64,000 bases of DNA, from contig JAQTLX010000017.1 of assembly GCA_028714695.1 (NCBI GenBank), forward strand, positions 1 through 64,000, given 5' to 3'. Below are positions 23,647-28,276 of the stretch, one piece after another. The stretch is from Ignavibacteria bacterium (GTDB lineage: Bacteria; Bacteroidota; Ignavibacteria; Tepidaquicellales; Tepidaquicellaceae). A program made the position numbers and the translations under genes. The notes under the pieces are model-generated. The model did no database searches, was not told the origin of the DNA, and saw nothing but the letters and a program-made list of their open reading frames with translations. Each line of letters starts with the position of its first letter. The first letter of the stretch is position 1.

Positions 23647-23931
23647 ATGGATCAGCAGGATTTATATTTTAGAGTAAAAGAACGCGTAAAAAGAATACGG
23701 GCTTTTTATGAACACTTATTCGTCTATATAGTTATTGTGTCAGGTGTTACAGTAATAAACTATATTGATTCTCCTGATGATTTGTGGTTCTACTACCCGA
23801 TGATAATCTGGGGAGTAATTGTTATAGCCCATGCAATAAAAGTCTTTGGAAAGGGCAGGACGTTGGTCGAAGAGTGGGAAGATAAAAAAATGAAAGAACT
23901 GTTGAAGACCAAAAAGAGCAATGAGAATTAG
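23647..23931 (+). CDS. 2TM domain protein
   Basis: The 94-aa protein matches the 2TM domain pattern: a basic amphipathic start (VKERVKRIRAFYEHL), a membrane helix with VYIVIVSGVTVINYI, a loop with DDLWFYYPMIIWG, a second helix, then HAIKVFGKGRTLVEEWEDKKMKEL. These small proteins are frequent in Bacteroidota and are sometimes fused to LytTR regulators or histidine kinases, but here the domain stands alone. Its stop overlaps that of the convergent comEC by four bases. Confidence 0.85.
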   Translation: MDQQDLYFRVKERVKRIRAFYEHLFVYIVIVSGVTVINYIDSPDDLWFYYPMIIWGVIVIAHAIKVFGKGRTLVEEWEDKKMKELLKTKKSNEN

Positions 23932-26288
23932 TTTTCAGCCTTAATATTTCTACCGTCGCATATAAGTCTGACTGCGTTATCAGTATCCGTTCTGAATATC
24001 CGTGCCCCTGTCTCTTTAATTCTTTCCGTTACAAATTCGGAAAAGATTCTTGATTTTTCCCCCGCAGTCGAAATTATACATAAATCCGGTTTCACTTTTA
24101 CAAGGAACTCAACACCGGTAGATTTATCGCTTCCTGCTTTTGCGATTTTCAATACATCCGATTTAAGAAAATCATTGTAAATATTAATAATATTCATCTC
24201 GTCGTCTTTAACTGTGTTTCCCGCGAAAAGGAATGAACGTTCACCGTATACTAGTTTTGTCATAAATGATTTCTCTTCCTTATTTTTAAGAAAATAAAAT
24301 CTGAGACTCCCGTATCCCGAAATCATTTCGGTATTATCGATTGTCTCTATTTCCGTTTGATTCCTGATAATAAGGTCGGCAAGTTTACTCTTAATATCTA
24401 CGCTGTTTACGGCAATTATTTTCTTGATCCTGAAATTGTCGTACAGGTTTTTAATGCAATAATAATTCTTGTTTATGTTTGTTGTGATTACCAGAAGGCT
24501 GATTTCAGCGGCTTGCTTTCTTTTCAGATAGGGGATTACTCTCGCTGAATTAGAGCGGCTGAAAGGGGTTTCGGTTCCCGCATCTATTAGTATTTGACTT
24601 CCGTCCGGCGTTTCTATGTGAGCGCAGTCTGAATTTCCGATGCTTAGATAAGTAATCTTGAGCGAACTGCTATCCTGATATCCGTAAATAACAAAACACA
24701 AAACGATAGTGATTGAAATCAAAATTCGCGGAATGAAATTTGTCCTTTCTGAGGTTGCAAGAATGAAAATCACGAAATAAAATGTGATGATTGATAAAGT
24801 TGTAATCCCGAATATTTCCACATAACTGTAATTAATTGATGAGCATTCTTTAATGAACCATAACTGAAACATCAGAAGAAGTTTGTTGCTCGCTGCAATT
24901 ACCGAACACAGAAAAGATGAGAATGTTCCCGTTATAATCTGAAAAAACCCCAGTGCAAGCGAAATGTTCGAAAGCGGAATCGCTATCAGGTTCGCAAAAA
25001 TACCAATCAAAGATATCTTCGAAAAATATAAAACCGTTATCGGTAAAACTCCTATCTGTGCCGTGATTGTAGTTAATAATAAAACGAACAATTTGTTTAG
25101 CAGAAGCCTGATACCCTTTTTCCTTTTTCCGAATCCCGGAAATAAATGATTGAATCTCTCCATAAAAAAAACTATGGATAAAACCGAACTGTACGTTAGT
25201 ATAAACCCCGGGTTGAATAATTGTTTTGAGTCAATTGCTAGAATTACGATTGCTGAGAAACCTGTTATATTGTAAAAATTGATTTTTCGCTGAACAACCA
25301 GAACTATTAAAATTAACGCTCCCATGATAACCGCTCTTATTATAGACGCAGTGGCTCCGGTGAAGTAAGTGTAAAATGTCAGCGCAATTATATAAAGAAT
25401 TATCTTAGGAATAAGATGCACCCTGAAGAAACTGAAGATGAATGATAAAATCAGAATTACGTATGCTACGTTTAATCCCGATACTGCGAGTATGTGCATT
25501 ACGCCTGCTTTCACGAAATCATCTTTTATCTCAGCCGATAAATCGCTTCTGTAACCCGTTACAAGTCCGTTCAGAAAAGCCGCTTCGTCTCCTCCGATAT
25601 ACTCGTTAATATTCGCGATGGCGTATTTTCTCGCCGGCAGTATAATGTTCTGCTCTATATAATTTAAATTGTTCCTGCTTATTATTTCGATATCGTCGGG
25701 ATAATGCACTCTGAATGTTTTGTCAATATCATTTAAATAAAGATAATTCCTGTAGTTGAATTCACCCGGGTTTGTTTCTTCGGGCGCGTCCGTAAGGTCG
25801 CCGAATAGTAATATTCTGTCGCCTGCTTCGGGAAGTACTGCCGAATCTCTGCTCACTATCTGTTTTGACGGTTTTATGCTGACAAGTATATTGCCGGATA
25901 TGTTTAAAGTGTCTTTTTCGAGAATTAAATTTTCTGCGTTTAATGTAAATCTGATTTTATCTCTCGTTGTTTCAGGCAGGTCGGATATAACGCCCGTCAC
26001 AAAAATATTGGAATAATTTCTGCTGATGTTCAGAACAGACTCCCTTTCAAGATGGTGAAAATCGAAATTTGATTTTGCTATGCCTGCCAATATTATCAGT
26101 ACGAATAATATTATGCTGTTATTATAAACTTTCCCTTCTCTGTTTAAGAATAATACAATTATCAGTAATATGATTAACAAAAAAATAATAAGCCGGCTAA
26201 AAACAATTGCGCGGCCGATGCATATTCCTACACAAAAGAACACCGCGAAAATAAAAGAAGGCGCTGTAGATAATTTGTTTATTAACAT
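23928..26288 (-). CDS. comEC: ComEC/Rec2 DNA-uptake channel with degenerate hydrolase domain
   Basis: ComEC conducts single-stranded DNA across the inner membrane during transformation. The 786-aa protein has N-terminal helices and an OB/DUF4131-like region (about 80-185). The competence membrane domain (about 220-500) includes LNGLVTGYRSDLSAEIKDDF and HILAVSGLNVAYV. The C-terminal beta-lactamase-like domain begins at YLSIGNSDCAHIETPDGSQI. In that domain the usual HxHxDH is replaced by TTNINKNY, the later GD by GN (LFAGNTVKDD) and HHGS by KAGS. No metal ligand seems left, so the domain is probably not a nuclease. The channel domain looks complete. Confidence 0.9.
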   Translation of the reverse strand: MLINKLSTAPSFIFAVFFCVGICIGRAIVFSRLIIFLLIILLIIVLFLNREGKVYNNSIILFVLIILAGIAKSNFDFHHLERESVLNISRNYSNIFVTGVISDLPETTRDKIRFTLNAENLILEKDTLNISGNILVSIKPSKQIVSRDSAVLPEAGDRILLFGDLTDAPEETNPGEFNYRNYLYLNDIDKTFRVHYPDDIEIISRNNLNYIEQNIILPARKYAIANINEYIGGDEAAFLNGLVTGYRSDLSAEIKDDFVKAGVMHILAVSGLNVAYVILILSFIFSFFRVHLIPKIILYIIALTFYTYFTGATASIIRAVIMGALILIVLVVQRKINFYNITGFSAIVILAIDSKQLFNPGFILTYSSVLSIVFFMERFNHLFPGFGKRKKGIRLLLNKLFVLLLTTITAQIGVLPITVLYFSKISLIGIFANLIAIPLSNISLALGFFQIITGTFSSFLCSVIAASNKLLLMFQLWFIKECSSINYSYVEIFGITTLSIITFYFVIFILATSERTNFIPRILISITIVLCFVIYGYQDSSSLKITYLSIGNSDCAHIETPDGSQILIDAGTETPFSRSNSARVIPYLKRKQAAEISLLVITTNINKNYYCIKNLYDNFRIKKIIAVNSVDIKSKLADLIIRNQTEIETIDNTEMISGYGSLRFYFLKNKEEKSFMTKLVYGERSFLFAGNTVKDDEMNIINIYNDFLKSDVLKIAKAGSDKSTGVEFLVKVKPDLCIISTAGEKSRIFSEFVTERIKETGARIFRTDTDNAVRLICDGRNIKAEN

Positions 26289-26387: not shown

Positions 26388-27692
26388 ATGAATATTGTTG
26401 AAATAATTAAGAAAAAACGCAATGGCGGGAAACTGACACGTCGGGAAATCAGTTATTTGATACATGGTTACCTCGATGGTGAAGTAGCGGATTATCAAAT
26501 TACGGCTTTCCTTATGGCAGTTTATTTCAGGGGAATGGATGACGAGGAAACTATCAATCTGACTGAAATTATGCTGAACAGCGGTGATATTATTGATCTC
26601 AGCCGTATAAAAGGCGTTAAGGTCGATAAACATTCCACAGGCGGAGTGGGAGATAAAACTTCTTTAATTCTTGCACCTCAACTGGCGTCATTGGGAGTAT
26701 TTGTTCCTATGATTTCAGGCCGCGGTCTCGGACATACGGGCGGTACTCTCGATAAACTCGAATCGATTCCTGGCTTCAGGATTAACATGGATGTAGAAGA
26801 GTATAAGAAAACGCTTGAAAAGGTCGGTTGTGTTATGATAGGTCAAACAACTAAAATAGCGCCGGCAGATAAAAAGATATATGCCTTAAGAGATGTGACC
26901 GCAACTGTTGACAGCCTGCCTCTTATTATATCAAGTATTCTGAGTAAAAAACATGCTGAAGGTGCGGAAGCGCTGGTTTTTGACGTGAAGATAGGCACGG
27001 GGGCAAATCTGCAGGATGAAAAAGAATCGGAAAAACTTGCTAAGCAGCTTGTGAGCGTGTCAAAAAAATTCGGTACGAAGGCAATCGCCGTTTTAACCGA
27101 TATGAACCAGCCTCTCGGTAATAAAATTGGGAACTGGCTCGAGACTGAAGAGTGCATCGAGGTAATGAAGGGAAAGAAAGTTGACGATTTATTAAAAGTA
27201 AATAATGTACTTGCAGGCGCCATGCTTCTTCTTGCCGGAAAAGCAAAAGATATTGACGAAGGCGAAATTATTGCAGGTCAGGCAATAGATAACGGTACGG
27301 CATATAATAAATTCCTTGAAATGGTGGAAGTTCAGGACGGCGATGTGAGTTACATAAAGGATTACAAAAATCTGAAACGTCCGGCGCACAGCCATAAATT
27401 TGTTTCTGAAAAAGAAGGTTACATTACAAAACTTGACGCTTTCAATATCGGTGTTGCTTCAGTTGAATTAGGCGCGGGCAGGAAAACTGCAGAAGATAAA
27501 ATTGATTATCTGTCTGGTATTATACTGAGTAAAAAATGCGGCGATAAAGTCAGTCACGGAGAGGTCATCTGCGAACTTTTCGCCGAGAATGAGGACAGGA
27601 TTATTAATGCTAAGGAATACGTAAAGCGCGCAATCGAAATCGGTGATGAAAAGAAATCACAACGCAAATTAATAATTGATATCATAGACTGA
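26388..27692 (+). CDS. Pyrimidine-nucleoside (thymidine) phosphorylase
   Basis: The enzyme splits thymidine, deoxyuridine or uridine with phosphate, releasing the base and (deoxy)ribose 1-phosphate. The 434-aa protein has KHSTGGVGDKTS (81-92), the phosphate/substrate motif. It also has the family signature around SGRGLGHTGGTLDKLESIPGF (about 114-134), and a C-terminal beta domain with LGAGRKTAEDKID. The length fits the Pdp/DeoA family; the precise specificity (pdp or deoA) is not resolved. It is divergent from comEC and overlaps the nuclease gene as TGATG. Confidence 0.92.
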   Translation: MNIVEIIKKKRNGGKLTRREISYLIHGYLDGEVADYQITAFLMAVYFRGMDDEETINLTEIMLNSGDIIDLSRIKGVKVDKHSTGGVGDKTSLILAPQLASLGVFVPMISGRGLGHTGGTLDKLESIPGFRINMDVEEYKKTLEKVGCVMIGQTTKIAPADKKIYALRDVTATVDSLPLIISSILSKKHAEGAEALVFDVKIGTGANLQDEKESEKLAKQLVSVSKKFGTKAIAVLTDMNQPLGNKIGNWLETEECIEVMKGKKVDDLLKVNNVLAGAMLLLAGKAKDIDEGEIIAGQAIDNGTAYNKFLEMVEVQDGDVSYIKDYKNLKRPAHSHKFVSEKEGYITKLDAFNIGVASVELGAGRKTAEDKIDYLSGIILSKKCGDKVSHGEVICELFAENEDRIINAKEYVKRAIEIGDEKKSQRKLIIDIID

Positions 27693-28276
27693 TGTTTGGT
27701 TTAAGCAGAAAACTAATATCATCTGCGTTCACTGCGATTTTTATTCTTATGCTTGTTGTTTACGTGGTTTACAATAAGTATAAAGATGAAAGCGGGGACA
27801 ATCCCCGGACGAATAAGTCTTCCGAACTTCTAACTGTGAAGAGGGTAGTGGACGGCGATACATTCCTGTTGTCCGACGGCGAAAGAGTCAGGCTGCTGGC
27901 AATAGATACACCCGAAAAATTTGAATCTAAAAAACTGGACAAAGATGCGGAATCAAGCGGCAAGGATAAAAAGACAATAAAGAAACTCGGTCAACTTGCA
28001 AGCGATTATGTGAAAAATCTTGTTGAAGGGAAAAAAGTAAGACTGGAAAAAGAACCGAATTATGAAGATAAGGACAAATACGGCAGATTGTTAAGATATG
28101 TATATCTTGAAGACGGTACGTGCGTTAATGCAAAAATCATAAGCGACGGCTACGGGCAGGTCTATGAAAGTTATCCTGTCTCGAAAACAAATGAGTTCAG
28201 AAAACTTCAGAGGGAAGCCCGTGAGAACGGAAGGGGACTCTGGGGAAATATAGAAGGATTAGAACAATTCAAATAA
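27692..28276 (+). CDS. Membrane-anchored or secreted thermonuclease-family nuclease
   Basis: The 194-aa protein has an N-terminal hydrophobic segment (about 9-27), then a staphylococcal nuclease fold: VVDGDTFLL (about 52-60), [11 protein letters not shown] (65-75), [11 protein letters not shown] (128-138) and NGRGLW (179-184). By comparison with the family, Arg67, Asp72, Glu75 and Arg132 would be catalytic or calcium-binding. It would cut DNA or RNA outside the cytoplasm. It overlaps the preceding nucleoside phosphorylase by one base, and guaB begins six bases later, suggesting one transcript for nucleic acid use. Confidence 0.88.

What the first reader, a model, noticed from the sequence alone, without database searches (positions are those of the whole stretch)
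23928..24700. ComEC whose beta-lactamase-like domain has lost every visible metal ligand
In ComEC the C-terminal domain normally carries HxHxDH, a later GD and HHGS as metal ligands for a nuclease thought to degrade the non-transported strand. Here the matching positions read TTNINKNY, LFAGNTVKDD and KIAKAGS. The domain is still full length and its strands are kept, while the channel domain looks normal. A DNA uptake channel with a structurally kept but inactive hydrolase suggests strand degradation is done by another protein, or that the domain has a new binding role. A secreted thermonuclease is encoded nearby.
Basis: partly seen in the sequence, partly recalled or inferred. Interest (0 to 1): 0.58.

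Follow-up and report, generated by a model that had tools for sequence, protein, structure and literature searches.

The report
DNA-uptake channel with dead nuclease domain
In this bacterium the protein expected to pull DNA into the cell keeps the complete shape of its attached DNA-cutting domain but has lost every residue thought necessary to cut, and relatives have lost it separately several times, so the domain is probably kept for something other than cutting.

Summary
The window's only ComEC (786 aa, 23928-26288, minus strand) has ordinary OB and channel parts and a full-length C-terminal metallo-beta-lactamase (MBL) domain in which all six expected metal ligands are replaced and the strand-guiding loop has changed. 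One histidine remains in the domain, so ligands have not simply shifted. The AlphaFold model still superposes on the M. glycerini ComEC nuclease (Z 33.0, rmsd 1.9 A, 246 residues). It is no frameshift: all five same-genus species share the loss. Of 44 genomes in the order, 23 have lost the site, 18 keep it, 3 cannot be scored; the channel tree needs at least four losses. In lost lineages the domain stays under purifying selection (dN/dS 0.06-0.12 in close pairs) and new residues are fixed at old ligand sites. The adjacent thermonuclease also sits beside active comEC genes, so it is not specific to the loss. A dead ComEC domain is already described for Streptococcus pneumoniae; new here is its complete, repeated occurrence in this order. 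Pfam does not call the dead domain, so Pfam-based surveys would score it absent. Function in DNA uptake is untested.

The parts
23928..26288 (-). comEC, 786 aa, single copy in the genome
   Evidence: ORF; only PF03772 match in the genome; TIGR00361 at 190.0 bits (cut-off 190.05)
25695..26195 (-). DUF4131/OB-fold region, residues 32-198
   Evidence: Pfam PF13567 E 4.9e-24
24753..25565 (-). Competence (channel) domain, residues 242-512
   Evidence: Pfam PF03772 E 1.3e-48; 26 of 29 near-invariant columns retained
23931..24671 (-). Degenerate MBL (nuclease-like) domain, residues 540-786
   Evidence: No Lactamase_B hit at E<=10, yet VIA-align Z 33.0 to 9ic4 over residues 540-786
24465..24482 (-). 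Former HxHxDH motif, now T603 N I605 N K607 N608
   Evidence: Alignment; K607 and N608 invariant in 5 of 5 same-genus rows
24216..24218 (-). Former aspartate of the GD motif, now N691
   Evidence: Alignment
24129..24140 (-). Former HHGS motif, now K717 A718 G719 S720
   Evidence: Alignment
24042..24065 (-). Former NxFxHP (strand-guiding) loop, residues 742-749, aromatic and His lost
   Evidence: Alignment; correspondence with the L. pneumophila loop (R688, F689, F691) is by spacing from the conserved Ser, not by an alignment run here
26388..27692 (+). Pyrimidine nucleoside phosphorylase, divergent neighbour of comEC
   Evidence: Pfam PF00591, PF02885, PF07831
27692..28276 (+). Short SNase (thermonuclease) with a hydrophobic N-terminal stretch; candidate periplasmic nuclease
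   Evidence: Pfam PF00565 E 2.4e-22; beside comEC in lost and kept relatives alike; membrane anchoring is read from the sequence, not predicted by a tool

Best explanation
This is a ComEC DNA-uptake channel whose C-terminal nuclease has become a pseudo-nuclease. SHOWN by sequence and model: all metal ligands and the strand-guiding loop are lost, the fold is complete, and in ligand-lost relatives the domain remains under purifying selection; the same loss happened separately in other lineages of the order. INFERRED: the domain is kept as a structural and DNA-handling cap over the channel entrance, next to the OB fold, and no longer cuts. The non-imported strand is then removed by other periplasmic nucleases or simply displaced while the other strand is pulled in. 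This is like what is proposed for S. pneumoniae ComEC, but no single substitute nuclease is identified here.
For: Ligand loss: six of six in the window, 0-2 of six kept in all 23 scored lost rows, against six of six kept in 43 rows, 28 of them class outgroups. One His in the domain. Fold kept in the window (Z 33.0) and in an independently lost family (L109, Z 28.7, rmsd 2.3 A, 247 residues). Purifying selection: MBL dN/dS 0.061-0.084 in a close ligand-lost trio with dS 0.54-0.60, against 0.074-0.099 in their channel, and 0.112 and 0.157 for two kept pairs; 0.119 at dS 1.5 for one pair in the window's genus. Neutral drift at 0.6 changes per site left no stop-free domain in 2000 simulations. Recurrence: least four changes on the channel tree; one-clade trees rejected, p-AU 3.65e-10 for all lost rows and 1.7e-4 for lost rows of the window's family. 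DprA matches in 44 of 44 and HHH_3 (ComEA-type) in 43 of 44 order genomes.
Against: The MBL domain evolves about 1.7 times faster relative to the channel in lost than in kept lineages of the order (ratio 1.76 against 1.03), so constraint is partly relaxed. In two lost genera (g14, g4) the domain has shortened to 193 and 172 residues, so it is not kept at full length everywhere. Catalytic mutants abolish transformation in L. pneumophila (Stedman 2025), so a dead domain could equally mean that transformation is lost. DprA and HHH_3 are too widespread to prove competence (both also ring in E. coli). No experiment bears on this organism.
Confidence: 0.55

Rival explanations
1. Hand-over to a separate nuclease: a periplasmic enzyme (the neighbouring short SNase, or an EndA-family Endonuclease_NS) degrades the non-imported strand, as EndA does in S. 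pneumoniae, and this made the ComEC nuclease dispensable.
For: The short SNase lies next to comEC in the window and several relatives. Endonuclease_NS occurs in 7 of 23 lost and 0 of 18 kept genomes, Fisher p 0.012. Short SNase or Endonuclease_NS: 21 of 23 lost against 11 of 18 kept, p 0.028.
Against: The window genome has no Endonuclease_NS match. The SNase neighbourhood is shared with ligand-keeping relatives; SNase alone p 0.075. Only two independent pairs on well-supported branches (three on all branches), so no association can be shown. The 'either' grouping was chosen after seeing the data.
Confidence: 0.3
2. The domain has been repurposed: the former active-site pocket now binds a partner, a nucleic-acid end or another ligand, using residues fixed separately in each lost clade.
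For: At or beside former ligand positions K607 and N608 are invariant in 5 of 5 same-genus rows, and E608, F609, R610 and N569 in 13 of 13 rows of the other family, where only 66 of 244 and 33 of 251 columns are invariant.
Against: Other former ligand columns vary in the same clades. Invariance in five or thirteen related sequences is weak evidence. Net charge without ligand columns does not differ consistently.
Confidence: 0.25
3. These lineages no longer transform; ComEC has another task or is drifting slowly, and the nuclease decayed because no DNA is imported.
For: Loss of ligands and strand-guiding loop together; relaxed MBL/channel rate ratio; truncation in g14 and g4.
Against: The channel keeps 25-29 of 29 near-invariant residues in all lost rows that cover it fully, channel dN/dS in the close trio is 0.074-0.099, and DprA is present in all 44 genomes.
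Confidence: 0.2
4. The domain is still a nuclease with a non-canonical or shifted metal site.
For: D554 and D569 are retained in the window.
Against: One His in the domain; several other ligand-lost rows have none; most ligand columns carry unrelated residues in different clades.
Confidence: 0.03

Closest known systems
Streptococcus pneumoniae ComEC (with EndA)
   Same: Full-length MBL domain with non-conservative changes at metal positions, proposed inactive; retained perhaps as a DNA guide (Baker 2016 PMC5031224, section 12; Silale 2021 PMC8579336, passages).
   Different: S. pneumoniae keeps two of seven metal positions and has EndA; here none of six is kept and the window genome has no Endonuclease_NS match. 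Losses here recur within one order of a different phylum.
Moorella glycerini ComEC beta-lactamase-like domain (PDB 9ic4)
   Same: Same fold, Z 33.0 over 246 residues.
   Different: That domain is an Mn2+-dependent nuclease with H598, D600, D602, H603, D700, H725 (Stedman 2025); the corresponding motifs are lost here.
Helicobacter pylori ComEC and other ComEC proteins scored as lacking Lactamase_B
   Same: No active ComEC nuclease; fate of the non-imported strand unknown.
   Different: H. pylori ComEC ends before the domain; here the domain is present but not called by Pfam.
MBL pseudo-nucleases such as CPSF100 and INTS9
   Same: MBL fold kept without a working metal site (recalled; only a search listing was seen; entries containing INTS9 appear among fold matches).
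   Different: Those partner an active paralogue (recalled); no such partner was shown for this ComEC.

Membership tests
ComEC/Rec2 family | Competence (PF03772) channel domain | tested here: met
   E 1.3e-48; 26 of 29 near-invariant residues
ComEC/Rec2 family | DUF4131/OB fold | tested here: met
   E 4.9e-24
ComEC/Rec2 family | TIGR00361 full-length model at its cut-off | tested here: inconclusive
   190.0 bits against a cut-off of 190.05
ComEC/Rec2 family | Imports DNA | not testable with these tools
   No experiment on this organism
Active ComEC-type MBL nuclease | MBL fold | tested here: met
   Z 33.0, rmsd 1.9 A, 246 residues to 9ic4
Active ComEC-type MBL nuclease | Metal ligands (HxHxDH, GD, HHGS) | tested here: not met
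   0 of 6
Active ComEC-type MBL nuclease | Strand-guiding loop with aromatics | tested here: not met
   Window S746 and I748 where kept rows have F/Y and H; correspondence with L. pneumophila by spacing only
Pfam Lactamase_B | Score over gathering cut-off 22.7 bits | tested here: not met
   No hit at E<=10; seven of seven other lost proteins also below, three of three kept proteins above
ComEC with inactive MBL domain | Retained but ligand-poor MBL domain | tested here: met
S. pneumoniae arrangement (inactive ComEC domain plus EndA) | EndA-family nuclease (PF01223) in the genome | tested here: not met
   No PF01223 match in G000; genome about 96% complete

The most novel reading that the evidence does not exclude
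Conversion of the ComEC nuclease into a selected, non-cutting domain is a recurrent and common evolutionary path. Part of the ComEC proteins counted as lacking the nuclease domain, including many Bacteroidota proteins with 150-220 residue tails after the channel, would then carry dead or shrunken MBL domains that guide DNA, so that DNA uptake without ComEC-borne strand cutting would be ordinary in this phylum.
Probability: 0.3. Interest if true: 0.7.

Novelty: new variant of a known kind. Interest (0 to 1): 0.5.

Why it matters
How the non-imported strand is handled where ComEC lacks an active nuclease is stated as open by Silale et al. 2021. An order in which related lineages differ in whether the nuclease site survives is a natural comparison for that question. 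It also shows that surveys based on the Pfam Lactamase_B model would record such domains as absent, which would affect estimates such as Lactamase_B in 52.3% of competence-domain proteins (Pimentel and Zhang 2018).

Tried and rejected
Frameshift or assembly error: rejected, intact reading frames in the same-genus species (in G004 the gene lies on two contigs, which were scored as separate rows and not joined). Two apparently split genes (G008, G023) contain N runs and keep their ligands; they were counted as kept.

Shifted ligands: rejected, one His in the domain.

Thermonuclease as specific replacement: not supported.

Endonuclease_NS as replacement: suggestive only, no match in the window genome.

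Bacteroidota tails as shrunken MBL domains: profile comparison gave only weak in-register matches (probability 11%, E 0.0027 over 65 columns with 35 tails; probability 39%, E 3e-4 over 33 columns for three other families); several groups showed nothing. Not claimed. The 35 tails were chosen from 50 by length and family.

Charge shift of dead domains: seen, not consistent once ligand columns are left out.

Other weak points: 11 of 71 rows were dropped before the rate test (listed in the script; rerun); two of 71 rows with under 200 channel residues (G004 second contig, G039) were left out of the tree. G041 was labelled lost in the tree and from its family, its domain being cut by the contig end. 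p-AU 0.025 and 0.021 for two further groupings and the other clade tests come from groups named after the tree was seen. The first alignment script misread minus-strand loci; its minus-strand rows were discarded. One search failed for a thread setting. dN/dS is a simple counting estimate; many pairs were saturated at synonymous sites and were not used.

Full report
THE GENE. Window 23928-26288 (minus strand) encodes a 786-residue ComEC, the only PF03772 protein in the genome. Pfam finds DUF4131 (residues 32-198) and Competence (242-512) but no Lactamase_B even at E 10; TIGR00361 scores 190.0 bits, just under its cut-off of 190.05.

THE SITE. In an alignment of 71 rows (43 rows from 42 genomes of the window's order, 28 rows from other families of the class) I scored six ligand columns. 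All 28 outgroup rows and 15 order rows carry all six. The window carries none: T603, I605, K607, N608, N691, K717. Also changed are A718 of HHGS and the NxFxHP loop (E744, S746, I748, F749). Among the 44 genomes of the order 23 are lost (0-2 of 6), 18 kept and 3 not scorable: G041 is cut by a contig end, and G021 and G027 have fragments only. The 18 kept include G018 with 5 of 6, a possible intermediate, and G008 and G023, whose genes are interrupted by N runs but whose ligands can be read. The contrast is nearly all-or-none. The window retains 16 of 31 near-invariant MBL columns and 26 of 29 channel columns. It has one His in the domain; kept domains have 6-14, and lost domains average 1.3, range 0-7.

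THE FOLD. AlphaFold2 on 66 aligned sequences gave mean pLDDT 88.7, pTM 0.85. The best match, covering residues 540-786, is the M. glycerini ComEC nuclease domain 9ic4: Foldseek E 6.8e-16, VIA-align Z 33.0, rmsd 1.9 A, 246 residues. A protein of the other, separately lost family (L109) gave pLDDT 84.2 and Z 28.7, rmsd 2.3 A, 247 residues to the same structure.

HOW OFTEN. On a tree of the channel part alone (69 rows), lost against kept needs at least four changes, three of them forced by well-supported branches: family f2; genera g14 and g4; g11, whose sister G006 keeps the site; and the window's genus g1 with g6. A single clade of all lost rows is rejected, p-AU 3.65e-10, as is one of the lost rows of the window's family, p-AU 1.7e-4; two further groupings gave p-AU 0.025 and 0.021. 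The losses are therefore at least three, probably four, taking regain of a lost site as unlikely. Named relatives fetched are mostly Ignavibacteria and other uncultured Bacteroidota or neighbouring groups; outside the two families of this order the aligned named rows keep the HxHxDH, GD and HH motifs, with occasional changes in the last His or the Ser.

SELECTION. Between three close ligand-lost genomes of f2 the MBL domain has dN/dS 0.061, 0.083 and 0.084 at dS 0.54-0.60, and their channel 0.074-0.099; kept pairs G005-G020 and G073-G205 have 0.112 and 0.157; G003-G004 of the window's genus 0.119 at dS 1.5 (simple counting method). Neutral change of 0.6 per site left no stop-free domain in 2000 simulations, mean 9.6 stops. 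Relative to the channel, on a fixed topology, the MBL domain changes faster in lost lineages (1.76) than in kept ones of the order (1.03) or the outgroup (0.85) (60 rows, 11 dropped; ligand columns left out). So the domain is constrained but less tightly than an active one. New residues are fixed at or beside old ligand positions: K607 and N608 in 5 of 5 g1 rows; E608, F609, R610 and N569 in 13 of 13 f2 rows, while 66 of 244 and 33 of 251 columns respectively are invariant.

SURROUNDINGS. comEC is divergent from a pyrimidine nucleoside phosphorylase gene followed by a short SNase gene. The short SNase lies within about 3 kb of comEC in lost genomes (G000, G001, G002, G009, G014) and in kept ones (G025, G011, G028, G026, G022, G019, G008, G023), read from coordinates. 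Presence of short SNase: 20 of 23 lost and 11 of 18 kept, p 0.075; Endonuclease_NS: 7 of 23 and 0 of 18, p 0.012; either: 21 of 23 and 11 of 18, p 0.028 (41 tree rows, G041 counted as lost by family and G039 absent). Relatedness leaves only two or three independent contrasts, so none of this shows a hand-over. DprA: 44 of 44 genomes, 43 over the cut-off. HHH_3: 43 of 44.

WHAT IS KNOWN. Baker et al. 2016 (passages and section 12) describe an S. pneumoniae ComEC with most metal positions lost and EndA as the working nuclease, and H. pylori without the domain. Silale et al. 2021 (passages) suggest an inactive domain may guide DNA and call the fate of the strand in ComEC proteins without the domain an open question. 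Stedman et al. 2025 (abstract, passages, section 21) show that ligand mutants lose activity and transformation, and identify the strand-guiding loop. Pimentel and Zhang 2018 (passages) scored domains by Pfam. Eight of eight lost proteins tested here fall below the Lactamase_B cut-off and three of three kept ones above it. Searches for ComEC with Ignavibacteria, with metallo-beta-lactamase and inactive, and with Bacteroidetes and lactamase listed no paper whose title or abstract start reports this loss in this group; these listings cover only the held open-access library.

WIDER LEAD. Several groups of Bacteroidota ComEC proteins carry about 150-220 residues after the channel in which I saw no HxHxDH-type motif. 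Profile comparison gave weak in-register matches to the MBL domain. This is a lead, not a result. R. anatipestifer, a transformable flavobacterium, needs ComEC, and its authors leave the strand-degrading step unidentified (PMC8459023, passages); its ComEC tail was not examined here.

VERDICT. Catalytic loss is near certain from sequence, retention under selection well supported, recurrence well supported; the role of the dead domain and whether these bacteria transform are inference.

Noticed in passing
L010 (G018, genus g15): A ComEC with five of six ligands; the first His of HHGS is Asn, the Ser is Gly and the loop His is Asn: a possible intermediate stage of the loss.
   Followed up: partly
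L146 (G017) and L147 (G007): Ligand-lost ComEC whose MBL domain has shortened to 193 and 172 residues, still recognisable by profile comparison.
   Followed up: partly
L195-L235, L246-L274 (Bacteroidota ComEC tails): Tails of about 150-220 residues after the channel in many of these proteins that resemble parts of an MBL domain in register but weakly; may be shrunken dead domains.
   Followed up: partly
window 26388-28276: Divergent neighbour pair pyrimidine nucleoside phosphorylase and short SNase; the SNase lies beside comEC in several genomes of the family whatever the state of the ComEC nuclease.
   Followed up: partly
G030, G034, G038, G041 (family f2): Endonuclease_NS domains, in three of these four genomes inside open frames of over 700 residues.
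   Followed up: no
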